A stretch of 38,849 nucleotides of DNA from an uncultured SAR86 cluster bacterium (GTDB lineage Bacteria; Pseudomonadota; Gammaproteobacteria; Magnimaribacterales; D2472), in contig CACBQK010000008.1 in the NCBI GenBank assembly GCA_902541365.1, forward strand, positions 1 through 38,849, written 5' to 3'. Positions within the stretch are counted from its first letter, which is position 1. Each line of letters starts with the position of its first letter. The notes beneath the pieces were generated by a model, which saw only the letters and a program-made list of their open reading frames with translations, was not told where the DNA came from and made no database searches. Positions 17,038-38,849 of the stretch are shown one piece after another. The translations under genes were made by a program, and so were the position numbers.

Positions 17038-17764
17038 ATTTATTAAGAATCATTAAAGCTTTTTTATAATCAGTCTCAGTATCAATTCCAATACTTAACT
17101 CTTCAATTTCCTCTAAATAGATATCATATCCATTATCTAAAAATCTTAATTGCTCTAGGTTTTCAGAGGTCTCATTTTTAGATCTAGGTAATGAAACGAA
17201 AATATTTAAAGTTTTGTAGTTATATGAATATATACCAACATGCTGAAAATACTTAACTTTACTTTTTGTAAAGTTGTTTGGAATAACATTTCGTGAAAAA
17301 TATAAAGCTCTATTTGAATTTGATAAAGAAACTTTTACATTATTTACGTCATGCAAATCATTATCTTTAAATAAAGTACATGCTGAGCCAACAGACGCAT
17401 TTACATTATTGTAAATTATATCTGCTGTTTTATTTATTGTTTCTGGATTAATAAATGGCTCATCGCCTTGAACATTAACTATAACCGTATCATCACTAAC
17501 GTCCAATTTAGACGCACACTCATGAACTCTATCAGTACCAGACTTATGCTCTTTTGAGGTTAAGATAACATTAGAAGAAAAGTTTTTTACATGATCCTCA
17601 ATTTTTTTTGAATCAGTTGCTATAAAAACTTCTTTAGCATTGCTCTGTATAGCCCTAAAATAAACTCTTTCGATCAAACTCTTTCCATTTAAATCTAGAA
17701 GAGCTTTTTCTTTAAGTCTCGTGCTAGAAAGTCTTGAAGGAATTATTACGATAAACTCATTCAT
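17030..17764 (-). CDS. kdsB: CMP-KDO synthetase KdsB
   Basis: A 244-residue 3-deoxy-manno-octulosonate cytidylyltransferase, which activates KDO with CTP for addition to lipid A. The nucleotide-binding start IIPSRLSSTRLKEKALLDL, the VFIATDS strand, KSGTDRVHE and VQGDEPFI (Mg2+-binding Asp) are diagnostic; NVIPNNF and the GIDTETDYKKA end are also typical. Length is normal. It overlaps the lpxK part of the upstream fusion by 8 nt and murB by 8 nt, so the envelope genes are tightly coupled. Confidence 0.97.
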   Translation of the reverse strand: MNEFIVIIPSRLSSTRLKEKALLDLNGKSLIERVYFRAIQSNAKEVFIATDSKKIEDHVKNFSSNVILTSKEHKSGTDRVHECASKLDVSDDTVIVNVQGDEPFINPETINKTADIIYNNVNASVGSACTLFKDNDLHDVNNVKVSLSNSNRALYFSRNVIPNNFTKSKVKYFQHVGIYSYNYKTLNIFVSLPRSKNETSENLEQLRFLDNGYDIYLEEIEELSIGIDTETDYKKALMILNKYD

Positions 17765-20525
17765 CGTTTGGTAAAGAACGTATTCTTGATTCTAGGTCAT
17801 TGATAAATGATTCTTCTATTTTTGGCTCAACAGTTAAAAACCAGATCCTAGGATTTCCAAAATTCTTACAACGTGCTGCATCTTTTTCAGTCATTATTAT
17901 TGGATGATGATCAAGAAATCCAAAATCACTTTCCTCAAATTGATGATGATCAGGAAAGGGATGTCTTTCGATGTCAAAATTTAGTTGAGACAAGGTATCA
18001 AAAAATCTTCCAGGATTACCTAAACCAGCAACAGCATGTATCTGATTATGCATAGGCCATTTATCAATATCATATGATTTACCTGTATTTAAATGTACAA
18101 ATTTACTTGGCTGTAGAGTCATAAGGATTTCACCATCTTCAGTTGGTCCGCCATTATTGATAATGTAGTTTCCTGTCTTTAATCGTTTTGATGATTCTCT
18201 TAATGGTCCAGCTGGGAATGTTAAACCATTTCCAAGTCTTCTAGATCCATCAATGACGATAATTTCAATATCACGATGCATCTTATAATGTTGTAGACCA
18301 TCGTCAGATAAAATTACGTCACAATCATTTTCATTAATTAGATTTTTAATTGCTCTAGATCTATTTTTATCTAAATAAAGAGGCACATTTAAATTAGCAA
18401 GCATTTGCGCTTCGTCACCTGATTTTTTATATTCAGTATTATCATCAACTCTCAGAGTTCCTGAGAAATTACCGCCGTAGCCTCTTGAAACAATTCCAAC
18501 TTTCATACCCTTCTCTTTTAGTTTTGAAGCAATATACTTAACTAGGGGCGTTTTACCTGTTCCTCCAATATTTATATTCCCAATAACAACAACTGGAGTA
18601 TCTGTTTTAAACGACGGAATTTGATTTTTAAGATATTTTCTTCTTCGTCTGTTGGTTAGAAAAGTAAAAATCCATGAGAATGGTAAGAGTAGATACAACC
18701 ATAAGTGTTTTTGATACCAAGCATTTATTACAAAACTGGAATTATTTTCAACATCGTCAATTGGCTGCAAATATGAAACTTTTTGTAGGGATGTAGACGA
18801 TGATTTCTTACTTTCAATTGGAACATTTTTATATAGTGAACCGTAGATGCCCTCTTCTTCAAGTAAATCTAAATGTTTGCCTTGTTGCGATATAAGACCA
18901 TTATCCAGCACTACTATTTGATCAGCATTTTCAATTGTTGATAATCTATGAGCTATAACTATCGTAGTTCTATCAGATATTAATTTTTCAAGTGACTCTT
19001 GCACTAATTCTTCCGATTCAGTGTCAAGAGCAGATGTTGCCTCATCGAGAATAATAATTGGAGAATTTTTATAAAAAGCTCTTGCTATAGCAAGCCTTTG
19101 TCTTTGACCACCTGACAGCAGTACACCATCATCACCTATTTCTGAATTTATGCCTTCTGGTAATTTATCTATAAAATCTAAACATCCAGCTAATCTGGCA
19201 GACTCAATTACTCTCTCAGTGTCAAATTCGTCATCACCATAGGCTATATTTCTTTCTATAGTGTCGTTAAATAAAGTTGGTGACTGAGTAACAATTGATA
19301 TTGATTTTCTAAGAAAACTTAAATCATATTCATCGCTTGGAATACCATCTATTAATATCTGCCCAGTGTAATTCGAATAAAATCTAGAAATAAGATTAGC
19401 CAATGTAGATTTTCCAGACCCCGATTTACCAACAAATGCTATTGTTTCATGCTTATTAACAATTAAATTTATATTATTTAATATATTTTTTTCTCCTGTA
19501 TATCCAAAAGAAACATCCTTAAACTCTATGACGCCTTCGATAGGTTTTGTTGTATCTCCAGTATTAACTTCGTCATCAAAATCTAATTGATCAAATATCT
19601 CATTAGCAGCTGCTAAACCTTTTTGAATAACTCCATTAATGCTTGATAACTGTCTTATAGGTTTTGCCATCAAGCCTGCTGCTGTAAAAAATGCTACGAA
19701 GGTTTCTGCATCAAGTGTTATTCCTAAGGAGGAACCTAATGCAAAATATGCAACTAAGGAAAGGGATATAGAAACTAAAAATTGTATTATTGGTGTAGCT
19801 AAATTATTAGTAGCTTCAAGTTTTAAATTCTGAACTTTATTTGAAGAGTTAGCATCTGCAAATCTACTATTTTCATACTCTTCAGCACCAAATGATTTAA
19901 TTTCAACATGACCATTTACGGCTTCTGAAGCAATATGAGTAACATCTCCCATTGCTGTTTGTATTTTTTTTGCAAGCCTTCTAAGCCTTTTACCAGCAAA
20001 ATAAACAATAATTGCAATTAAAGGTGCAGTAACAATGAGAAGTAACGTTAATTTCCAGTTAAGATAGATCATATAAAAGAATAAACCTATTAATAAAAAT
20101 CCTTCCCTGACTAAAGTTTTAATAGCATTAGATGCTGCACCAGATACTTGGGTTGTTGTAAATGTAATTCTATTAATTAATTGACCAGACTGATTTTGAT
20201 CAAAATATTTTTTTGGTAGCTGATGCAACTTTTTAAAAAGTTCATCCCGAAGATGGTAAACAACTCCAAATCCTACTCTGGCCATAAAATAATTACCAAT
20301 GAAGAAACCCAATCCTCGTGCAAGAGCAATGCCAATTAAAGATAATGCAAGAAGTTGCTGTTTATCTTCTGAGTTTTCATTAATGAAACCAATAATTTGC
20401 CTAATCCATTCAACTGCTGCTATATCAGCCGAAGCAAATAAAATAAAACCGAAAATACTTATTAAGAAAGACCATTTATATCTCCATGAATAAGAAAATA
20501 ATCTTTTTAAAGAATTTTGTTTCAT
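17757..20525 (-). CDS. msbA-lpxK: MsbA-LpxK fusion: lipid A flippase joined to lipid A 4'-kinase
   Basis: A single 922-residue frame holding two enzymes usually made separately. Residues 1 to about 570 are a complete MsbA-type ABC exporter: six membrane segments, then the ATPase with Walker A GKSGSGKST (366-374), signature LSGGQ (470-474), Walker B IIILDEAT (490-497) and H526. Residues from about 599 are a full LpxK (tetraacyldisaccharide 4'-kinase): membrane-helix start LWLYLLLPFSW (608-618), P-loop GNINIGGTGKTP (649-660), VSRGYGG, SDDGLQHYKMHRD, FPAGPLRE and MTEKDAARC. A linker of about 28 residues (571-598, Ser-rich) joins them. There is no stop, frameshift or in-frame ATG at the junction, and both halves look active. 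LpxK phosphorylates the lipid A precursor on the cytoplasmic face; MsbA flips the finished core-lipid A. Start ATG overlaps the exbD stop (ATGA). kdsB follows with an 8-nt overlap. Confidence 0.95.
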   Translation of the reverse strand: MKQNSLKRLFSYSWRYKWSFLISIFGFILFASADIAAVEWIRQIIGFINENSEDKQQLLALSLIGIALARGLGFFIGNYFMARVGFGVVYHLRDELFKKLHQLPKKYFDQNQSGQLINRITFTTTQVSGAASNAIKTLVREGFLLIGLFFYMIYLNWKLTLLLIVTAPLIAIIVYFAGKRLRRLAKKIQTAMGDVTHIASEAVNGHVEIKSFGAEEYENSRFADANSSNKVQNLKLEATNNLATPIIQFLVSISLSLVAYFALGSSLGITLDAETFVAFFTAAGLMAKPIRQLSSINGVIQKGLAAANEIFDQLDFDDEVNTGDTTKPIEGVIEFKDVSFGYTGEKNILNNINLIVNKHETIAFVGKSGSGKSTLANLISRFYSNYTGQILIDGIPSDEYDLSFLRKSISIVTQSPTLFNDTIERNIAYGDDEFDTERVIESARLAGCLDFIDKLPEGINSEIGDDGVLLSGGQRQRLAIARAFYKNSPIIILDEATSALDTESEELVQESLEKLISDRTTIVIAHRLSTIENADQIVVLDNGLISQQGKHLDLLEEEGIYGSLYKNVPIESKKSSSTSLQKVSYLQPIDDVENNSSFVINAWYQKHLWLYLLLPFSWIFTFLTNRRRRKYLKNQIPSFKTDTPVVVIGNINIGGTGKTPLVKYIASKLKEKGMKVGIVSRGYGGNFSGTLRVDDNTEYKKSGDEAQMLANLNVPLYLDKNRSRAIKNLINENDCDVILSDDGLQHYKMHRDIEIIVIDGSRRLGNGLTFPAGPLRESSKRLKTGNYIINNGGPTEDGEILMTLQPSKFVHLNTGKSYDIDKWPMHNQIHAVAGLGNPGRFFDTLSQLNFDIERHPFPDHHQFEESDFGFLDHHPIIMTEKDAARCKNFGNPRIWFLTVEPKIEESFINDLESRIRSLPNDE

Positions 20526-31726: not shown

Positions 31727-32637
31727 TTTATCTCTAAGTGATTTTTTAAATCAATTTTAAACTGATTAAAGACAGGTTCTTCAATAAGATGACCCATATT
31801 ATCGATAATTTTAATCTTACTATTTTTGATAAGTTTATTTGTATGAAAAGCATTTTTAACCTTTATTAATGGATCAGTTTTACCATGAACTATTAATGTA
31901 GGTATGCTAATAGTATTTACTTTATCGATTCTGTTTTTAGTTCCAAGTATAGCTGCCATCTGTCTTATAAAACCTGAATCATCCGGACTCCTTTTTATGG
32001 TCTCATTTACTTCTTTTTTAAATTGGGGATTATCATAGTCGAATCCATTCATACCTATTGTTGAAACTAGCCGAACAGTTCTATCGATTCTCTCCTCTTT
32101 CGATGCATTTTTAAAAGCTCTTTCACCAAGTAACTTTATGACAGAAAATTTTGGGCCATTAAAGGGGTTTGGAACAGAAACCATTGAAGCTATTTGTGTA
32201 TACGAATAAAAACGATCTTGATGATTTGAAACTAGAATTTGGGAAATCATGCCGCCCATTGACATACCAATTATATGACATTTATCAATCTTTAATGTAT
32301 CAAGAAGCAAAACAGCGTCGTCTGCCATGTCATCCAGTTTATATTCTGACTTTATAGGCAAGTAAAAGTAATACTTTAAGATATTAGTTAAAAAGGTTGG
32401 TTTGGATTTAAATCTACTTGAAAGACCCATGTCCCTATTATCATAAGCTATCGGTCTATATCCACTTTGTTGAAGAAATTTAATCATGTATGGTGGCCAA
32501 AATGTGAGCTGACCACCAAGGCCCATTACCAAGAGCACAGGAATACCATCAGCGGGACCATAATCTCTATAATAAATTTTTAGATTATTTTTTGTTGCAT
32601 AACCCTCTTCGAATCCAGATGCATCATTAAAGAACAT
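31720..32637 (-). CDS. Alpha/beta hydrolase
   Basis: A 305-residue alpha/beta-hydrolase fold protein. Oxyanion region LLVMGLGGQLTFWP, the DNRDMGLSSRF loop, nucleophile elbow GMSMGGM (S126), acid in IVHGKTDPLI and catalytic His in DNMGHLIEE are all in place. It resembles the aclacinomycin-methylesterase/proline-iminopeptidase-like set; no signal peptide, so cytoplasmic. The substrate is unknown. It overlaps the GPH transporter by 7 nt and lies 2 nt after the hotdog thioesterase, giving a three-gene unit thioesterase-hydrolase-transporter. Confidence 0.88.
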   Translation of the reverse strand: MFFNDASGFEEGYATKNNLKIYYRDYGPADGIPVLLVMGLGGQLTFWPPYMIKFLQQSGYRPIAYDNRDMGLSSRFKSKPTFLTNILKYYFYLPIKSEYKLDDMADDAVLLLDTLKIDKCHIIGMSMGGMISQILVSNHQDRFYSYTQIASMVSVPNPFNGPKFSVIKLLGERAFKNASKEERIDRTVRLVSTIGMNGFDYDNPQFKKEVNETIKRSPDDSGFIRQMAAILGTKNRIDKVNTISIPTLIVHGKTDPLIKVKNAFHTNKLIKNSKIKIIDNMGHLIEEPVFNQFKIDLKNHLEINC

Positions 32638-32639
32638 GG

Positions 32640-33038
32640 TTATACTAACTTGCTAGTAGCGGTTGCACTAGCAACTATTTTTTCATTTTGGAAAAGTTCT
32701 GCACTCGTATATGCAATCGTTCTTCCCTCCTTAATATACTTAGCTTTCACAAGAATTTCTCCAACAGTACAAGGTCTTAGAAATTGGACATTAATATCAA
32801 GCGTTAAAGGATTTACTTGACCATTTGTTAAAGCTAAAACAAGTTGCGCCATACATGAGTCAAGCATAGCAGTAACAAATCCACCTTGAACAATTGTGTC
32901 ATTTGAATGGGTTAGCTCTACTGAGGCATTAAATTTAAGCTCAAGGGTTTTGTTATCTTTATCAAGATTAAAATCTGAAAAACCAAGAATATCTAAGAAT
33001 TTAGGTTTATTGATACTGAAAGGATTAAATTCATGCAT
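32640..33038 (-). CDS. PaaI-type hotdog thioesterase
   Basis: A 132-residue single hotdog domain. The region TIVQGGFVTAMLDSCMA corresponds to the HGG-(x)-D/E helix of PaaI-like acyl-CoA thioesterases, with Gln in the usual His position and Asp as the likely catalytic acid. LTLDINVQFLRPCTVGEI and the IVASATATSKL end are also family-like. It probably hydrolyses a CoA thioester in the cytoplasm. First gene of the unit with the hydrolase and the GPH transporter, 17 nt downstream of tRNA-Ser on the same strand. Confidence 0.85.
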   Translation of the reverse strand: MHEFNPFSINKPKFLDILGFSDFNLDKDNKTLELKFNASVELTHSNDTIVQGGFVTAMLDSCMAQLVLALTNGQVNPLTLDINVQFLRPCTVGEILVKAKYIKEGRTIAYTSAELFQNEKIVASATATSKLV

Positions 33039-33055
33039 GTTTATTATTAAGTAAG

Positions 33056-33145
33056 TGGCGGAGAGACAGGGATTCGAACCCTGGAAGGAGTTGCCCCCTT
33101 GCTGGTTTTCAAGACCAGTGCATTCAACCGCTCTGCCATCTCTCC
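33056..33145 (-). tRNA. tRNA-Ser (anticodon UGA)
   Basis: The minus strand folds into a full 90-nt tRNA: acceptor GGAGAGA paired with TCTCTCC, discriminator G and encoded CCA, anticodon stem CTGGT/ACCAG with loop CTTGAAA (anticodon TGA), a long serine-type variable arm (AAGGGG/CTCCTT) and a T arm CAGGG-TTCGAAT-CCCTG. It reads UCA and other UCN codons. It is the only RNA gene in the window. Confidence 0.97.
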
Positions 33146-33213
33146 TAAAGGCAAATATTATAAATTATTTTTTCTACTGAATCTTCCAATAGGTATCGTT
33201 TCCTTTTCTTATA

Positions 33214-34635
33214 TTAATTAGCTGTCAATTTTCTTTTTCTTCTACTTCCATGTTTTAGATAAACCAGCTTAGCTTCTTCTTTAAAAGCTTTATCTTTTCT
33301 TATACTCCATACTCGATCACGTGCAAATTTTGCAGATGCTTTCAAGTCAACTATTTTAGGCAAATAAGAGCCATTTAAATTTGCATTATGTATTATTTTT
33401 GGATCAAATTTTTTCAGTTCAGGTAAAAGACTTTTAATCCAATAAGCATTTGGATCTTGGTCCATGCTTTGCTTTGTTACTGAGTATATTCGTGGAAGAT
33501 TAATACCAGTAACACCACTTTGCATCTGAACCTGACTAATATGGATTCCGGGCTCATAGTCAGTAAAGAGTCTTGCTAAAAGCGGAGATGTTTTTTGCCA
33601 TGGTTGCCACATATTATACGAGGCAAATGACATAATCATTGCCCTCATTCTAAAATTAATCCACCCATCGGTTTGCAAAAACTTCATACAAGCATCTAGA
33701 AAAGGGAATCCTGTTTTACCTGTGATCCATTTTTCAATCATCTCATCATCATGTTCTGTCCTTAGATCATCACACATGCGGTGCATAGAATTAAATTCTA
33801 ATTCTGGTTCGGTATGTAGTTTTTGAACAAAATGACAATGCCAATAGAGTCTTTTCTTAAAAGAATAAAGGTCTTTTTTGTTATTCAATAATGGAAGTAA
33901 TTTGTTTAATTGTTGATATACCTGCCTTATAGATACCGAACCATAAGTGAAATGAGGAGATAATCTTGAACAAGTTTTTTCAGATAGTACAGGGCTAGAC
34001 ATTTTTGTTCTGTAGCCCTCACATCTATGTTCTAAAAAAGTCTCCAACAAATCGTTAGCAATTGAAGTACCTCCTTTTTGAATGCTTTTCGAATGTTTCA
34101 AATTGCTATTTAATTTTGCTTGGTAACTTTTGAAGTCTGTTAATTGGATTTCATCTTTATTGTGAGAAATTTTAGGAGGTCCAAGAACATCTTTGTTCAT
34201 AATATGATTCCAATTTTTTGACCAAGAATCTCTATCGAAATTATCTAATTGCAATCCAAAATCGTCATATATTTTAATTTTTTTTTGGAAATAATTTTTG
34301 AATCTCTCAAATCCATCTCTAAAATATCCAACATCAGTGCAATGATTCATATGGATAAAATAATCCTTGTAGTTGGCATGAATCCAATTCTTTAAGTCAT
34401 CGAAATTACCCTCGAATATATTAATTTTCGAGTGAACCTCTCTTAGATCTTCATTGAGCTCTTTTAAACAATCATTTGAAAATTTTAATTGTCTTGATGA
34501 TTTACCATTAGCTTTCCAATAATTTTCATCATATAAATAAACAACAATATAGTTTGATCTTAAGGAACCATAATATAGAGCTGCATTATCTAGTATTCTT
34601 AAGTTTCTATTTATAATAATGATATCTGTTGTCAT
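33214..34635 (-). CDS. Deoxyribodipyrimidine photolyase/cryptochrome family protein
   Basis: A 473-residue flavoprotein with an N-terminal Rossmann antenna domain (about 1-130, starting IIIINRNLRILDNAAL) and a C-terminal helical FAD domain. FAD-binding and Trp-rich segments are RLYWHCHFVQKL, TGFPFLDACMKFLQTDGW, INFRMRAMIMSFASYNMWQPW, and LARLFTDYEPGIHISQVQMQ, with GINLPRIYSVTKQSMDQDP after it. The last pattern belongs to a bacterial subgroup close to photolyases that is often named cryptochrome; repair of UV dimers is likely but the subgroup's activity cannot be read by eye. It lies beside a DCC-type CxxC gene on the same strand, 41 nt away. Confidence 0.88.
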   Translation of the reverse strand: MTTDIIIINRNLRILDNAALYYGSLRSNYIVVYLYDENYWKANGKSSRQLKFSNDCLKELNEDLREVHSKINIFEGNFDDLKNWIHANYKDYFIHMNHCTDVGYFRDGFERFKNYFQKKIKIYDDFGLQLDNFDRDSWSKNWNHIMNKDVLGPPKISHNKDEIQLTDFKSYQAKLNSNLKHSKSIQKGGTSIANDLLETFLEHRCEGYRTKMSSPVLSEKTCSRLSPHFTYGSVSIRQVYQQLNKLLPLLNNKKDLYSFKKRLYWHCHFVQKLHTEPELEFNSMHRMCDDLRTEHDDEMIEKWITGKTGFPFLDACMKFLQTDGWINFRMRAMIMSFASYNMWQPWQKTSPLLARLFTDYEPGIHISQVQMQSGVTGINLPRIYSVTKQSMDQDPNAYWIKSLLPELKKFDPKIIHNANLNGSYLPKIVDLKASAKFARDRVWSIRKDKAFKEEAKLVYLKHGSRRKRKLTAN

Positions 34636-34676
34636 AAATTACGTTATTAAGGATTTGTTAAATTTGAGCTTAATCT

Positions 34677-35009
34677 CTAAATATTTCTTAACAATTTAAA
34701 GCGCCAATACAATAAAAAAGCAAGGATTGAATATGCAAATATAGCCAAATGTTTAACTATTGGTAAAGATATAAATCTTCCTAGCCATTGATAACCATTT
34801 GTTCTATTCCAAACATAAATAAATGCATCAACGCCTTCCAATTCTTCACCATCAGGAAAGATAACATGCAATCTTTTTAAATACTTATCATCCATTTCAC
34901 TACAGTCAGAAAATTCTAATGATGATCTTTTTTTATAATGTTGAATTTCAAAATTACAAATTCCGCATTTTTCATTAAAAAGAACTTTGCCATTAATTTC
35001 TAAGTTCAA
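34677..35009 (-). CDS. DCC-family (DUF393/YuxK) thiol protein
   Basis: A 110-residue protein of the DUF393 family named for its Asp-Cys-Cys motif. Here the motif reads FNEKCGIC (about 11-18), with Glu-Lys before the first Cys. VIFPDGEELEGVDAFIYVW and WLGRFISLPIVKHLAIFAYSIL are typical of the family, whose end is a hydrophobic helix. Predicted disulfide oxidoreductase-like role, unproven. Start is TTG at 35009: an in-frame TAG lies directly upstream, so no earlier start exists. The TTG overlaps the TGA stop of a 36-residue membrane protein gene (TTGA). Confidence 0.85.
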   Translation of the reverse strand: MNLEINGKVLFNEKCGICNFEIQHYKKRSSLEFSDCSEMDDKYLKRLHVIFPDGEELEGVDAFIYVWNRTNGYQWLGRFISLPIVKHLAIFAYSILAFLLYWRFKLLRNI

Positions 35010-35116
35010 CTAACAACTCCAAAATAAACAAACACTGACCAAAGACTGAAATAAACAATTGCGCCAAGCGCTAAACCAATTATTATTGTTGAAATTTTTA
35101 TAAATGCTTTTTTCAT
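35006..35116 (-). CDS. 36-residue single-span membrane protein
   Basis: A short frame from ATG at 35116 to TGA: a Lys-rich start (MKKAFIKIS) and one hydrophobic helix (TIIIGLALGAIVYFSLW), a positive-inside topology typical of real small membrane proteins. Its TGA overlaps the TTG start of the DCC gene by two bases, the reading that explains that unusual start. No clear ribosome-binding site is visible. No family is recognised. Likely a genuine small gene missed by length filters. Confidence 0.6.
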   Translation of the reverse strand: MKKAFIKISTIIIGLALGAIVYFSLWSVFVYFGVVS

Positions 35117-35209
35117 AATAATGTAATGATATCAAAAGTGATAATATCTCACTATGAGAATGAATTGTTCAGTACTATATTTGACTATATAAATGTTTGT
35201 AAATTTAGA

Positions 35210-35749
35210 ATGAAAAATTTGCTAATTTTATCTTTAAGTTTTTTTATTCTTACGTCGTGTGAAGTTTCACAATCGGAAAATGTTTACACTCCACCGAATA
35301 ATAAAATAAAGCCAATTGAAAATCTTATCTATTACACTGATGTAAATTCATTAGAAATTATTAAAACTAAAATAAAAGAGATTCTTATGATCAATCAAAA
35401 TAATATTATTATGATTGAACCTGAAGAAATAAGTAGTTTTATTGATTGTGGATATATGAATAATGAAATATATGTTGATTATATAAATAGAATTTTTAAT
35501 TCATCTTTAACTATTAAAATTATCTTTCTAGATCAAAAACTCGACGATAGAAAAGCACTTTATATTGATTTTGATTACATATTTAAATCGAAGGAAACTG
35601 GAACTACCTGGCGTTTTTCAACAAAAAAATCAAAAGATCTTTTAGTTGGTAATCCTGTTTACGATGATAATCCTTACAGAGCATGTTCATCAAAACAAAA
35701 AATTGAGACTAAATTAAAAAATGTTCTAGAATATCAACTAAAATTTTAA
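35210..35749 (+). CDS. Lipoprotein of unknown function
   Basis: A 179-residue protein with signal MKNLLILSLSFFI and lipobox LTSC, so it is predicted to be a lipoprotein exported by the Lol pathway if sorted outward. The frame opens at 35126, but the ATG at 35210 begins the signal sequence. The mature part is acidic/Ile-rich, includes the pattern YIDFDYIFKSKETGTTWRFS and ends with a Lys-rich segment. Two cysteines beyond the lipobox (in IDCGYMNN and RACSSK) could form a disulfide. No family is recognised. It leads a three-gene plus-strand unit with the two small genes that follow. Confidence 0.7.
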   Translation: MKNLLILSLSFFILTSCEVSQSENVYTPPNNKIKPIENLIYYTDVNSLEIIKTKIKEILMINQNNIIMIEPEEISSFIDCGYMNNEIYVDYINRIFNSSLTIKIIFLDQKLDDRKALYIDFDYIFKSKETGTTWRFSTKKSKDLLVGNPVYDDNPYRACSSKQKIETKLKNVLEYQLKF

Positions 35750-35752
35750 ACA

Positions 35753-35914
35753 ATGACTAAATTTCTTCTTTCAATACCGTTTTTCTATGCAATACTGATG
35801 TTTGTGTCAATCAGCAAACAAGACAGCTGGAGCACCAATCTTTTTTCTAAGATCCTTATATATCTAATGATTCTTATTTGCTGTTTAGCTATTTTTGGTA
35901 TTTGGTACCTTTGA
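35753..35914 (+). CDS. 53-residue two-span membrane protein
   Basis: A short frame starting ATG 3 nt after the lipoprotein stop. Two hydrophobic segments (FLLSIPFFYAILMFVSI and ILIYLMILICCLAIFGIWYL) are separated by the polar loop SKQDSWSTNLFSK. Its TGA (35912-35914) overlaps the TTG start of the next gene as TTGA. Position, spacing and coupling support a real gene; the family is unknown. Confidence 0.65.
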   Translation: MTKFLLSIPFFYAILMFVSISKQDSWSTNLFSKILIYLMILICCLAIFGIWYL

Positions 35915-36225
35915 ACAAGCTAATTTTCTTTGTATTTCTATCATTATCTATTCAAGCAAAGGATTTAAGTCTTCAGTGTGAAAATATAAAAAAAGCTGAA
36001 GATACTCATGGACTAATAATTAAATATCAAAAAAAACAATTTTTGTTTAAAGAAAATATCTATCTATTTAATAGTTATAGAGAAAATGAAATTTTTGCCC
36101 AACGTCGAACTATTTTTTTAAATTCATTCTTAGAATTTAATCAAAAAACATATGTGTTAATTGAAGTAAATTCATGGATCCATAAAATCACAAAAAATGA
36201 ATTTATCTGCAGGGTTGTTAATTGA
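35911..36225 (+). CDS. Small secreted protein of unknown function
   Basis: A 104-residue protein whose best start is TTG at 35911, giving the signal peptide MNKLIFFVFLSLSIQA, cleaved before KDL. An earlier TTG at 35878 would start in the middle of the preceding gene and place 11 extra residues before the signal. The mature part is basic and Phe/Asn-rich with two cysteines (LQCEN and FICRV), which may pair in the periplasm. No family is recognised. Its tail overlaps the convergent esterase gene by 8 nt. Confidence 0.6.
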   Translation: MNKLIFFVFLSLSIQAKDLSLQCENIKKAEDTHGLIIKYQKKQFLFKENIYLFNSYRENEIFAQRRTIFLNSFLEFNQKTYVLIEVNSWIHKITKNEFICRVVN

Positions 36226-37138
36226 TTACTAAGTATTCAAGAACGCCATCAAATCTTGATCCAAACTCGGATGCATAATGATCATAACCATCAAAGACTA
36301 TATATTTATAGTCTTTTGATTTTGAATCTAGTATTTTATTAACTCTTCTTTGTGGTGTGCCATAGAGGGAATCTAAACCAATCGTTCCATGATCGAAATA
36401 TATTTTTTGATCATCGATATTAGTAATATTGTCCTCAATATAAGAAATAATCGCATTTGCAGTGTCATCATCACCATCTATTTTTCCAACAAGGGGTAAT
36501 AAAAAATATTCTAATGGTTTTATTCCAACCCAGTGAGTAGAAATGCAGCCGGCAAATCCAAATAGATCAGGGTGTTCTATTAAGGCATTTAATGCAGAAA
36601 GACCGCCCATGCTTGCACCAATGATTCCTAAATTCTTATTATTCAATGAGATATCAAACCTTTCTTCTACAAATGGAATAACATCTTCAGTTAGGAATTC
36701 TAAATAGTATAGATTATTGTTATTTACCCATTCTTGATAACGTCTTTTCTTAAAACCACTATCAAAGTAGGGAATTGATTCTTTTGGAAAATACTCAGCA
36801 TATCTTTTAGTTTCATCAACAAAAAATCGATTACCTTTTTTTGCGCTGTGTATACCAATTATGACAAAATTTAATTCATTTTCATTCAAATTCATTTGTT
36901 CAATCTTTTCATCAATGCCCCACTCCATGTTATGCCAGCTTTCAGCAGCGTTAAATAGCTCCTCTCCATCATTCATAAAAATAAACAATGTATCTGAATC
37001 AATTATTTTATTATTTGGATAATATATTTGAATTTTTCTTGTATCATAATCTGACTCAATTACAAAATTCTCTAACTCACCAAATGAAACATCTGAGAAG
37101 CTATTTAAAGATAGAAATAATAATAGAAGTATCCTCAA
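36218..37138 (-). CDS. Secreted esterase-like alpha/beta hydrolase (putative esterase family)
   Basis: A 306-residue protein of the esterase D/enterobactin-esterase-like group. Signal MRILLLLFLSLNSFS is followed by the mature enzyme, probably periplasmic. Family patterns are LFIFMNDGEELFN, FVIIGIHS, EDVIPFVEERFDI, the nucleophile elbow GASMGGL (S176) and the His in FDGYDHYASEF. The substrate is unknown (sugar or siderophore esters are known for the group). The start is TTG at 37138: an in-frame TGA lies four codons upstream with no ATG between, and the TTG overlaps the stop of a 57-residue gene as TTGA. Confidence 0.8.
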   Translation of the reverse strand: MRILLLLFLSLNSFSDVSFGELENFVIESDYDTRKIQIYYPNNKIIDSDTLFIFMNDGEELFNAAESWHNMEWGIDEKIEQMNLNENELNFVIIGIHSAKKGNRFFVDETKRYAEYFPKESIPYFDSGFKKRRYQEWVNNNNLYYLEFLTEDVIPFVEERFDISLNNKNLGIIGASMGGLSALNALIEHPDLFGFAGCISTHWVGIKPLEYFLLPLVGKIDGDDDTANAIISYIEDNITNIDDQKIYFDHGTIGLDSLYGTPQRRVNKILDSKSKDYKYIVFDGYDHYASEFGSRFDGVLEYLVIN

Positions 37139-37308
37139 AATATTCTCTCAATAAAAGGATATAAATAATAAGCCGTCACACCTGAAATAATTAAAAGGCT
37201 ATACCAAAAAATTCTTGGTCTAGCATTTGGCAAAAAGTTACCTGTTTGATGCAATAATCCGAAAAAAATTACAAAAATCCAAAATAATATTACTTCACCG
37301 TAACCCAT
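37135..37308 (-). CDS. 57-residue two-span membrane protein
   Basis: A short frame from ATG at 37308 to TGA at 37135. Two hydrophobic segments (VILFWIFVIFFGLLH and WYSLLIISGVTAYYLYPF) flank the polar linker QTGNFLPNARPRI. It begins 3 nt after the stop of the 70-residue gene and its stop overlaps the esterase start by two bases. The double coupling supports a real, unannotated gene. No family is recognised. Confidence 0.65.
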   Translation of the reverse strand: MGYGEVILFWIFVIFFGLLHQTGNFLPNARPRIFWYSLLIISGVTAYYLYPFIERIF

Positions 37309-37311
37309 TTT

Positions 37312-37524
37312 TTAGAAAATCTTGTTATACAAAAAGAATACTGCTCCACCCACTGCCCACTGAAATACAGTAACCAAGAAAACCGATAATAAATAATAAA
37401 TTACATCTTTAATTTTAGGAGTTAAAAAAATATTTTTAAAACTCTCAACCGTGGTAAGAATTATCATCGATATTCCTACTGTAATGATCATACTTACATA
37501 AACTAAAGTATCTTGAATTTCCAT
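37312..37524 (-). CDS. 70-residue two-span membrane protein
   Basis: A 70-residue protein with two hydrophobic segments (LVYVSMIITVGISMIIL and YYLLSVFLVTVFQWAVGGAVFFL) separated by a short charged loop. An AAGGAGGA ribosome-binding site (37531-37538) lies just before the ATG, after the GGT stop at 37541. Not recognised as a named family. It is the second gene of the unit GGT - 70 aa - 57 aa - esterase. Confidence 0.75.
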   Translation of the reverse strand: MEIQDTLVYVSMIITVGISMIILTTVESFKNIFLTPKIKDVIYYLLSVFLVTVFQWAVGGAVFFLYNKIF

Positions 37525-37540
37525 TATAAATCCTCCTTAA

Positions 37541-38849
37541 CTAATAACCGCTTGCATGTCCGTCTTTTCTACTCTCAGATGCACCATAATACACCCCATC
37601 AACTCTCATAATTGCTTGATAACCACCATAACCACCTTTTTCGTCTTTAAGATTATGTCCTAATTTCATTAGTTCACTTCGCACTTGGTTATCGATGCCA
37701 GATTCAAGACTGAGAAATCCACCATTTATCATGGTTTCTCCAGTGGGTTCTGATGATCCAAAATGTCTTATACGTGGAGCATCTCCTGCTTCTTGAAGAT
37801 TCATTTGAAAATCTACAATATTTACAACGATTTGGGCATGCCCTTGAGGTTGCATCCCTCCACCCATTAATCCAAAACTTATAAATGGCTTGTCATCTTT
37901 GGTAATAAATGCAGGAATAATTGTATGAAATGGTCTTTTGCCACCTTCTAAGCTGTTACGATGTTTTGGATCTAAATTAAACATTTCTCCTCTATCTTGA
38001 AGCATAAAACCAAGATTTGGAGGAACCATACCTGAACCCATACCTCGATAATTACTTTGAATGAGTGAAACCATATTTCCATCTTTATCAGCAACTGTCA
38101 TATAGATGGTGTCGCCATTTTCAAAAATACCAGTGTCATAGGTGGATGCAGCTTTTTTAAGATCAATTAATTTATTTCTCTCTAATGCATATTCTTCAGA
38201 AATTAGTTCTTCAACAGGCACATCAGCAAAATTCATATCAGCATAGTATTTTGCTCTATCTTCATAGGCTAATTTCTTTGCTTCTGTAAAGATATGAATA
38301 TATTCAGCAGAGTTATGTCCCATATTAGAAATATCATATTGCTCAAGAATATTTAGTATTTGCAGAGCAGCAATACCTTGGCCATTTGGTGGTAATTCCC
38401 AAACATCAAAACCTCTATAATTAGATGAAACTGGAGTAATCCACTCAGGTTGGTAATTTTTGAGATCATCTTCTGAGAGAAAACCGCCTTGCTCAGTTAT
38501 GAATTTTGAAATTATTTTAGCTATATCACCTTTATAAAAACTCTCTCCATAGGATTTTGCAATTTCTTTGTAGGTATTGGCTAAACCCTTATTTACGAAA
38601 ACATCACCTTTTTTGAGAGCATCACCATTTGGCATCCATACATCTTTAAAATTTGGATAATCTTTATATCTCTCAGATGACAATTGAAGATAATAGCCAA
38701 CTACCTCAGTTATTGGAAACCCATTATCTGCATAGTAAATAGCGTTAGTAAATAACTCATCAAAAGAGTTTTTACCAAAGCGTTTATGAAGTGCAGTCCA
38801 ACCAGCAACAGCTCCTGGAACAGTAACTGGTAAAGGACCATATGGTGGA
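37541..38849 (-). CDS. Gamma-glutamyltransferase family enzyme, C-terminal part (5' end outside window)
   Basis: The frame is open through the right edge, so the start lies outside; about 435 residues are visible. Upstream of the first possible start codon the frame still reads family sequence (PPYGPLPVTVPGAVAGW). The GGT fold is clear: AYEDRAKYYAD, the autoprocessing/nucleophile Thr in GDTIYMTVADKDGN (codon 38108-38110), GSGMVPPNLGFMLQDRG and FGLMGGGMQPQGHAQ. These are Ntn-hydrolases, usually periplasmic, that cut gamma-glutamyl bonds in glutathione or related amides. The nucleophile context TIYM differs from the TTHF of classic GGT, as in the GGT-like acylase branch. It leads the minus-strand unit with two small membrane proteins and the esterase. 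Confidence 0.93.
   Translation of the reverse strand, partial: PPYGPLPVTVPGAVAGWTALHKRFGKNSFDELFTNAIYYADNGFPITEVVGYYLQLSSERYKDYPNFKDVWMPNGDALKKGDVFVNKGLANTYKEIAKSYGESFYKGDIAKIISKFITEQGGFLSEDDLKNYQPEWITPVSSNYRGFDVWELPPNGQGIAALQILNILEQYDISNMGHNSAEYIHIFTEAKKLAYEDRAKYYADMNFADVPVEELISEEYALERNKLIDLKKAASTYDTGIFENGDTIYMTVADKDGNMVSLIQSNYRGMGSGMVPPNLGFMLQDRGEMFNLDPKHRNSLEGGKRPFHTIIPAFITKDDKPFISFGLMGGGMQPQGHAQIVVNIVDFQMNLQEAGDAPRIRHFGSSEPTGETMINGGFLSLESGIDNQVRSELMKLGHNLKDEKGGYGGYQAIMRVDGVYYGASESRKDGHASGY

What the first reader, a model, noticed from the sequence alone, without database searches (positions are those of the whole stretch)
35006..37524. Cluster of tiny membrane and secreted proteins, partly unannotated
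Seen: within 2.5 kb lie genes for 36-, 53-, 57- and 70-residue membrane proteins, a lipoprotein and a 104-residue secreted protein, all with tight spacing or stop-start overlap with neighbours; the first three fall below common length cut-offs. Inference: this is an accessory envelope locus, possibly two convergent modules (lipoprotein/53 aa/secreted and GGT/70 aa/57 aa/esterase) of unknown function. It is the best place in the window to look for an undescribed system.
Basis: partly seen in the sequence, partly recalled or inferred. Interest (0 to 1): 0.5.

Follow-up and report, generated by a model that had tools for sequence, protein, structure and literature searches.

The report
Variable tRNA-Ser interval of tiny genes
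A short stretch of an ocean bacterium's chromosome holds several real but tiny envelope-protein genes that stay put in related bacteria while larger neighbouring genes come and go; it looks like a small gene-exchange spot rather than one new molecular machine.

Summary
In this SAR86-type genome the 36-, 53-, 57- and 70-aa membrane ORFs, the lipoprotein and the 104-aa secreted ORF are all present with the stated tight spacing. They are intact and under purifying selection in genus mates, so they are real genes. The inferred two-module "system" is not supported, because the six genes are not inherited together. The locus is a 0.85-4.4 kb variable interval between tRNA-Ser(UGA) and gamma-glutamyltransferase (GGT); both flanks align in every genus genome examined whose contig reaches them. 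Inside, three tiny membrane genes (36, 53, 57 aa) are constant. Other genes between them are gained, lost or replaced: lipoprotein 3 of 9, photolyase 2 of 9, DCC1-like 8 of 9, esterase and 70-aa ORF 5 of 8, 104-aa gene 7 of 8. No integrase or defence gene was recognised. The 36-aa gene recurs in a second SAR86 genus in three other settings, one with the same upstream element. The lipoprotein family was found only in SAR86-type genomes, often near a relative of the same esterase. Most likely this is a miniature, recombination-driven flexible locus of envelope genes; biochemical functions remain unproven.

The parts
33056..33145 (-). tRNA-Ser(UGA); one border of the variable interval
   Evidence: ARAGORN, Rfam; same tRNA in all 8 genus loci fetched and in G098 of another genus
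33214..34635 (-). photolyase/cryptochrome-like gene, variable (2 of 9 genomes)
   Evidence: PF03441/PF00875; presence
34677..35009 (-). DCC1-like thiol-disulfide oxidoreductase with CxxC and a C-terminal membrane segment; 8 of 9 genomes (not found in G005)
   Evidence: PF04134 E 4.1e-13
35006..35116 (-). m36: 36-aa single-pass membrane protein, constant (9 of 9)
35130..35143 (-). TATNACTTTTGATA element upstream of m36, shared with G009 and six genomes of another genus
   Evidence: (1 match, 0.01 expected)
35210..35749 (+). lipoprotein of a family found here only in SAR86-type genomes, variable (3 of 9)
   Evidence: model pLDDT 81.3
35753..35914 (+). m53: 53-aa two-pass membrane protein, constant (9 of 9; G007 partial at contig end)
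35911..36225 (+). s104: secreted 104-aa protein (TTG start), 7 of 8; another 57-aa membrane ORF takes its place in G003
36218..37138 (-). secreted esterase (PF00756, GASMGG), variable (5 of 8)
37135..37308 (-). m57: 57-aa membrane protein, constant (8 of 8), downstream of GGT
37312..37524 (-). m70: 70-aa two-pass membrane protein, variable (5 of 8)
37541..38848 (-). gamma-glutamyltransferase (runs off the window end); other border of the interval
   Evidence: PF01019 E 3.3e-128; TIGR00066

Best explanation
The locus is a miniature flexible genomic locus of SAR86 bacteria between tRNA-Ser(UGA) and GGT that carries envelope and secreted proteins. Shown: the small ORFs are conserved genes under purifying selection; the two flanks are conserved; single genes between constant tiny genes (m36, m53, m57) are present, absent or replaced in different relatives. 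Inferred: alleles and gene variants are exchanged by homologous recombination through the conserved flanks and the constant genes, without an integrase. Also inferred: each tiny membrane protein is co-transcribed or translationally coupled with a neighbour (m36 with DCC1-like, m53 with s104, m57 with GGT and the esterase) and acts as a membrane-bound accessory to envelope chemistry. It is not one dedicated six-gene machine.
For: Flanks: the tRNA-Ser side aligns at 80.6-86.7% identity in 8 of 8 genus relatives, as far as fetched (the G002 alignment, 83.1%, also spans part of the interval), and the GGT side in 7 of 7 whose contig reaches it; between them the alignment is patchy, and tRNA-Ser is found in 8 of 8. 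Contents per genome. The tRNA-to-DCC slot holds photolyase (G000, G002), a 97-aa membrane ORF (G003, G007), a 622-aa ORF (G009; DUF885-like by recall, not searched) or no gene that I found (G001, G004, G005, G008). In G003 the s104 slot holds a different 57-aa ORF that has 66-75% identical ORFs in 8 other named loci and no convincing similarity to the window's genes. Purifying selection. Mosaicism: G000 versus G002 is 94.2% identical over 35753-38849 but 83.1% over 32257-35055, with the lipoprotein only in G000; GGT and DCC1 trees disagree on G008. Kept spacing: m53 to s104 is -4 nt in 7 of 7 genomes with both, m57 to esterase -4 nt in 5 of 5. No recombinase among the 10 window proteins scanned; no accepted defence match.
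Against: Only nine genus genomes with the locus, most of them draft. The gain/loss pattern needs few events (1-2 changes per gene on the GGT tree), and that tree is itself affected by recombination. Breakpoints were not formally tested. The inserted genes of the relatives (97-aa, 622-aa, 57-aa ORFs) were not scanned for families. The photolyase-like gene, a variable one, matches a phage protein family of unknown function (PHROG 25969, E 5.9e-38), so a phage route for that gene is not excluded. The accessory role of the tiny proteins rests on spacing alone; m36 occurs without DCC1-like in G005 and in another genus beside other genes, which argues against a strict m36-DCC1 partnership.
Confidence: 0.62

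Rival explanations
1. Esterase, lipoprotein and 70-aa membrane protein form a real functional set (for example processing of ester-linked lipids at the envelope), and this locus is one home of it.
For: Of 19 family genomes with both esterase and lipoprotein matches, 14 carry them on one contig with less than 8 kb between them (my comparison of the coordinates). In G059, G062 and G067 they are directly tail to tail, and m70 lies about 1.8 kb from the lipoprotein in G059 and G062. In other SAR86 genomes the lipoprotein lies in a locus with fatty-acid hydroxylase, Mpo1-like and SO2930-type cytochrome genes. Membrane lipids are said to feed SAR86 beta-oxidation in the abstract of PMC11582366.
Against: In this genus the esterase and m70 occur without the lipoprotein in G001, G002 and G008, and the lipoprotein occurs in 46 of 107 family genomes against 28 of 107 for the esterase. 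The lipoproteins of the window and of the tail-to-tail loci fall in two different clades of a quick tree that carries long-branch warnings. m70 in G006 and G098 goes without an esterase match at E 1e-30. The linkage count is not corrected for phylogeny; most of the 14 are of one genus.
Confidence: 0.25
2. One reading: two convergent co-functional modules forming one undescribed envelope system of six genes.
For: Tight spacing and overlaps; all products are predicted at the envelope.
Against: Gene contents vary independently. m57 and s104 were found only in this genus, m53 likewise apart from one marginal hit, while m36, m70 and the lipoprotein occur elsewhere without the full set.
Confidence: 0.08
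3. m36 is a selfish or toxin-like single-pass peptide gene that relocates by itself among accessory spots.
For: 27 of 27 copies examined are 35-36 aa. It lies in three settings in genus g8 (behind a flavin-monooxygenase-like gene, beside a 95-aa membrane gene, behind a 362-aa gene) and in a fourth here; a tRNA-Ala(GGC) lies within 9 of 20 fetched g8 loci.
Against: 12 of 20 g8 copies lie near the same monooxygenase-like gene (11, and G053 about 2.3 kb away), so the scatter is modest and gene-order change under vertical descent can explain it. No match to a toxin family; no RNA family besides the tRNA; antisense RNAs were not sought otherwise.
Confidence: 0.03
4. The tiny ORFs are spurious.
For: Very short, AT-rich sequence; no accepted family match for the tiny ORFs.
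Against: Conserved frames, low dN/dS and fewer amino-acid changes than neutral reshuffling in most tested pairs.
Confidence: 0.02

Closest known systems
Replacement/additive flexible genomic islands of aquatic bacteria (PMC4033161: abstract seen; PMC10872708: passages seen)
   Same: Same chromosomal position in relatives, conserved flanks, a tRNA at a border, different genes inside, envelope-type products, mosaic sequence that suggests homologous recombination.
   Different: Far smaller (0.85-4.4 kb); single genes differ between constant tiny genes rather than whole clusters.
Tycheposons (passages in PMC10872708)
   Same: A tRNA at one border.
   Different: Described there as cargo-carrying transposons of 4-200 kbp with a tyrosine recombinase; none was recognised here.
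Genus-specific small-protein families as catalogued in GMSC (PMC11364881: passages seen)
   Same: Small, partly membrane-bound, without conserved domain; [quoted passage not shown]
   Different: m36, m70 and the 57-aa ORF of G003 cross genus borders here.
TIGR03805/TIGR03806 pair (beta-helix protein and SO2930-family diheme cytochrome)
   Same: In 19 of 42 named lipoprotein loci a relative of the TIGR03806 protein lies beside the lipoprotein match.
   Different: The window's own lipoprotein lies in another setting without them.

Membership tests
Replacement flexible genomic island | Same location, conserved flanks, different gene content in relatives | tested here: met
Replacement flexible genomic island | Raised synonymous divergence at borders from homologous recombination | tested here: inconclusive
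   G000-G002 synonymous differences rise from 0.14 (GGT) to 0.47 (m53) and 0.65 (m36) and trees conflict; no formal breakpoint test
Replacement flexible genomic island | Large gene-cluster size (recalled: typically tens of kb) | tested here: not met
   interval 849 to 4395 bp in eight genomes
Tycheposon | Tyrosine recombinase near the tRNA | tested here: not met
   no recombinase among the 10 window proteins scanned; the rest of the chromosome was not examined
Gamma-glutamyltransferase (PF01019) | Profile match above cut-off | tested here: met
   429 bits against 27; the part in the window scores 344.1 against the TIGR00066 cut-off of 357.85, the gene being cut by the window end
Putative esterase (PF00756) | Profile match above cut-off and GxSxG nucleophile | tested here: met
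   55 bits against 22; G-x-SMGG kept in alignment A7
DCC1-like (PF04134) | Profile match above cut-off and CxxC | tested here: met
   51 bits against 27.8; CGIC or CSIC
BamC-like lipoprotein fold | Confident structural match | tested here: inconclusive
   Z 5.0 to BamC and 5.5 to an AMPK sensor domain; best Foldseek E 0.024 in the PDB
Type I toxin-like peptide | Antisense RNA and toxicity | not testable with these tools
   Rfam showed only the tRNA
Known anti-phage defence proteins | PADLOC profile match | tested here: not met
   9 proteins scanned; one weak hit of the esterase (E 0.0072, no stretch passing on its own)

The most novel reading that the evidence does not exclude
The three always-present tiny membrane genes (m36, m53, m57) are the core of the locus: they keep a stable set of positions between tRNA-Ser and GGT into which SAR86 cells exchange single genes (lipoprotein, esterase, photolyase, 97-aa and 57-aa membrane proteins) by recombination. 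That would be a miniature gene-cassette board without integrase, built on small-protein genes.
Probability: 0.15. Interest if true: 0.6.

Novelty: new variant of a known kind. Interest (0 to 1): 0.36.

Why it matters
[quoted passage not shown] A sub-5-kb variable site stocked with conserved proteins of 35-70 residues shows that part of its envelope variation lies below usual gene-length cut-offs, and it supplies small-protein families (m36, m70, the SAR86 lipoprotein) that can be tested.

Tried and rejected
Rejected: spurious ORFs; known defence genes; one six-gene system. Phage origin is not supported for the small genes: PHROGs matched only the photolyase-like protein among 9 scanned; DNA of 34640-37540 had no match in phage records; a viral-contig scan for m36 gave 96 pattern matches and none confirmed. 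Plasmid records were not searched. My first count of five or more neighbour kinds of m36 did not survive a check: upstream ORFs of different length were pieces of the same monooxygenase-like gene.

Led nowhere: Pfam/NCBIfam on the tiny ORFs (weak sub-threshold matches only, such as PetM, FeoB-associated, Phr). Structure search with the lipoprotein model: no confident match (best E 0.024 in PDB, 0.008 in viral models). Families missing from the VIA list are not excluded. Structure of s104 from one sequence: pLDDT 52.6, not used. m36 beyond SAR86: 2 of 369 class genomes matched, one being the own genome and one a partial hit at E 4.8e-4 inside a 173-aa frame, taken as chance. m57 in the order: 8 of 203, all of this genus. 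m70 in the order: 10 of 203, one a fragment with two stops. Promoter and terminator scans were no better than shuffles, so the m36 upstream element is not called a promoter. Literature searches: SAR86 + small proteins + hypothetical, none; TIGR03806, none; SAR86 + gamma-glutamyltranspeptidase, one microbial-mat paper (listing); SAR86 + genomic island + lipoprotein, five papers judged unrelated from the listing; DCC1-like terms, one plant paper (listing); some searches gave the papers cited. No claim is made that these genes are absent from print.

Rows dropped: the esterase tree used 21 of the 25 loci handed to the script, out of 28 genomes with a match. The lipoprotein alignment and tree used 37 of 42 named loci plus the window; five were left out as partial, undetected by the ORF script or a near-duplicate. 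One search included 7 of 9 genus copies of m36 (G005 and G007 left out) and 20 of 20 from g8. One search tested up to six chosen genome pairs per gene, and one search printed a subset of pairs.
Full report
What is there. The window lies in a 1.02-Mb draft genome. The named loci found through the lipoprotein are labelled SAR86 (39 of 42) or carry broader Gammaproteobacteria/Proteobacteria labels (3 of 42). The six genes of the finding are present at the stated coordinates with the stated spacing. Identified neighbours are a DCC1-like thiol-disulfide oxidoreductase, a PF00756 esterase with GASMGG, gamma-glutamyltransferase and a photolyase/cryptochrome-like protein. The lipoprotein, m36, m53, s104, m57 and m70 have no accepted family match.

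Are the small ORFs genes? The locus was found in 9 of the 10 genus genomes held, own genome included; G006 had no match. The 36-aa ORF is present in 9 of 9, the 53-aa ORF in 9 of 9 (G007 cut by its contig end), the 57-aa ORF in 8 of 8 contigs that reach it, s104 in 7 of 8, the 70-aa ORF and the esterase in 5 of 8, and the lipoprotein in 3 of 9. Nei-Gojobori dN/dS in the printed pairs is below one for every gene, with s104 loose (0.14-0.43) and one short-branch m36 pair at 0.46. A reshuffling of the observed substitutions gives more amino-acid changes than observed in most tested pairs; three short-branch comparisons (m36 G003-G007, m70 G001-G008, s104 G001-G008) are not significant.

What kind of locus? 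A tRNA-Ser(UGA) lies at 33056-33145 and is found in all eight genus loci fetched and near m70 in G098 of another genus. DNA on the tRNA side aligns in 8 of 8 genus relatives and on the GGT side in 7 of 7 whose contig reaches it, while the stretch between is patchy. The interval ranges from 849 bp (G005) to 4395 bp (window) in the eight genomes where both borders are seen. The slot between tRNA and DCC1-like holds photolyase in G000 and G002, a 97-aa membrane ORF in G003 and G007, a 622-aa ORF in G009, or no gene that I found in four genomes; DCC1-like itself is missing in G005. In G003 the s104 slot holds a different 57-aa two-pass ORF, with 66-75% identical ORFs in 8 other named loci among those fetched; in L177 and L190 these lie beside methyltransferase-like and transporter-like ORFs (my reading of the sequences). 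So three tiny genes are the constant part, and mostly longer genes are the variable part, with m70 a tiny exception.

Exchange. G000 and G002 are 94.2% identical from m53 through GGT but 83.1% on the tRNA side up to m36, and the lipoprotein lies just between, only in G000. GGT joins G008 to G000 and G002, whereas DCC1-like joins G008 to G001. This fits homologous recombination, as described for flexible islands of aquatic microbes (PMC4033161, abstract; PMC10872708, passages), but no formal breakpoint test was run.

The parts elsewhere. m36 is found in 29 of 107 family genomes, 9 of this genus and 20 of genus g8. All 27 copies examined are 35-36 aa. In g8 it lies next to a 95-aa membrane ORF (6 of 20), behind or near a flavin-monooxygenase-like gene (11 of 20; G053 about 2.3 kb away), or behind a 362-aa gene (2 of 20); the monooxygenase label is my reading of the sequence. 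tRNA-Ala(GGC) lies within the fetched stretch in 9 of 20. The 95-aa neighbour is 51% identical to the 97-aa ORF of G003 and G007, so m36 and this protein share a locale in both genera. The element TATNACTTTTGATA occurs once in the window, upstream of m36, against 0.01 expected. Of 214 fetched loci 26 carry it; by their origin these are overlapping pieces of G000, G009 and six g8 genomes, all in the 95-aa setting for g8. It is absent upstream of m36 in G001, G002, G003, G004 and G008 and in the other g8 settings. m70 occurs in 9 of 107 family genomes, near lipoprotein and esterase in G059 and G062 and next to a TPR protein there and in G006. m57 and s104 are confined to this genus in the genomes searched, and m53 likewise apart from one marginal hit (E 9.5e-4) in a 341-aa frame of G073.

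Lipoprotein and esterase. The lipoprotein family is in 46 of 107 family genomes and the esterase in 28 of 107 at E 1e-30. Nineteen genomes have both, and in 14 they lie on one contig with less than 8 kb between them; the exceptions are G061, G069, G079, G080 and G092. An earlier count gave 14 of 18, a miscount. In 19 of 42 named loci a TIGR03806 cytochrome relative lies beside the lipoprotein (family name). The model of the lipoprotein (mean pLDDT 81.3) is an alpha/beta domain without a confident match; weak matches include BamC and START-like domains, which prove nothing. An esterase-lipoprotein set for lipid or ester processing is the main functional rival and is compatible with the locus model.

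Verdict. It is not a six-gene system; it is a very small tRNA-linked flexible interval. GGT as a route from glutathione to cysteine in SAR86 is already in print (PMC11582366, passage), and genus-restricted small families are common (PMC11364881, passages), which lowers the surprise.

Noticed in passing
17757-20525 (-): One 922-aa ORF appears to join an ABC-transporter (MsbA-like) half and an LpxK-like kinase half (names recalled from reading the translation, not searched).
   Followed up: no
L027:3721-3894 (-), L173:10711-10881: 57-aa two-pass membrane ORF in the s104 slot of G003, with 66-75% identical ORFs in 8 other named loci.
   Followed up: partly
L135:4115-7450; L174-L189, L191, L195, L203: SAR86 loci in which a TIGR03806 cytochrome relative lies beside the lipoprotein match, mostly with a TIGR03805 beta-helix relative before and a DUF2147 relative after it; some loci are cut by contig ends.
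   Followed up: partly
L052-L057: m36 divergent from a 95-aa membrane ORF and sharing the window's upstream element; an RNA-binding-protein-like ORF (recalled) lies on the other side in the loci where it was called.
   Followed up: partly
33047-33180: Short ORFs over the tRNA-Ser gene (MAERLNAL..., MAERQGFEPW...) are frames across the tRNA, not genes.
   Followed up: yes
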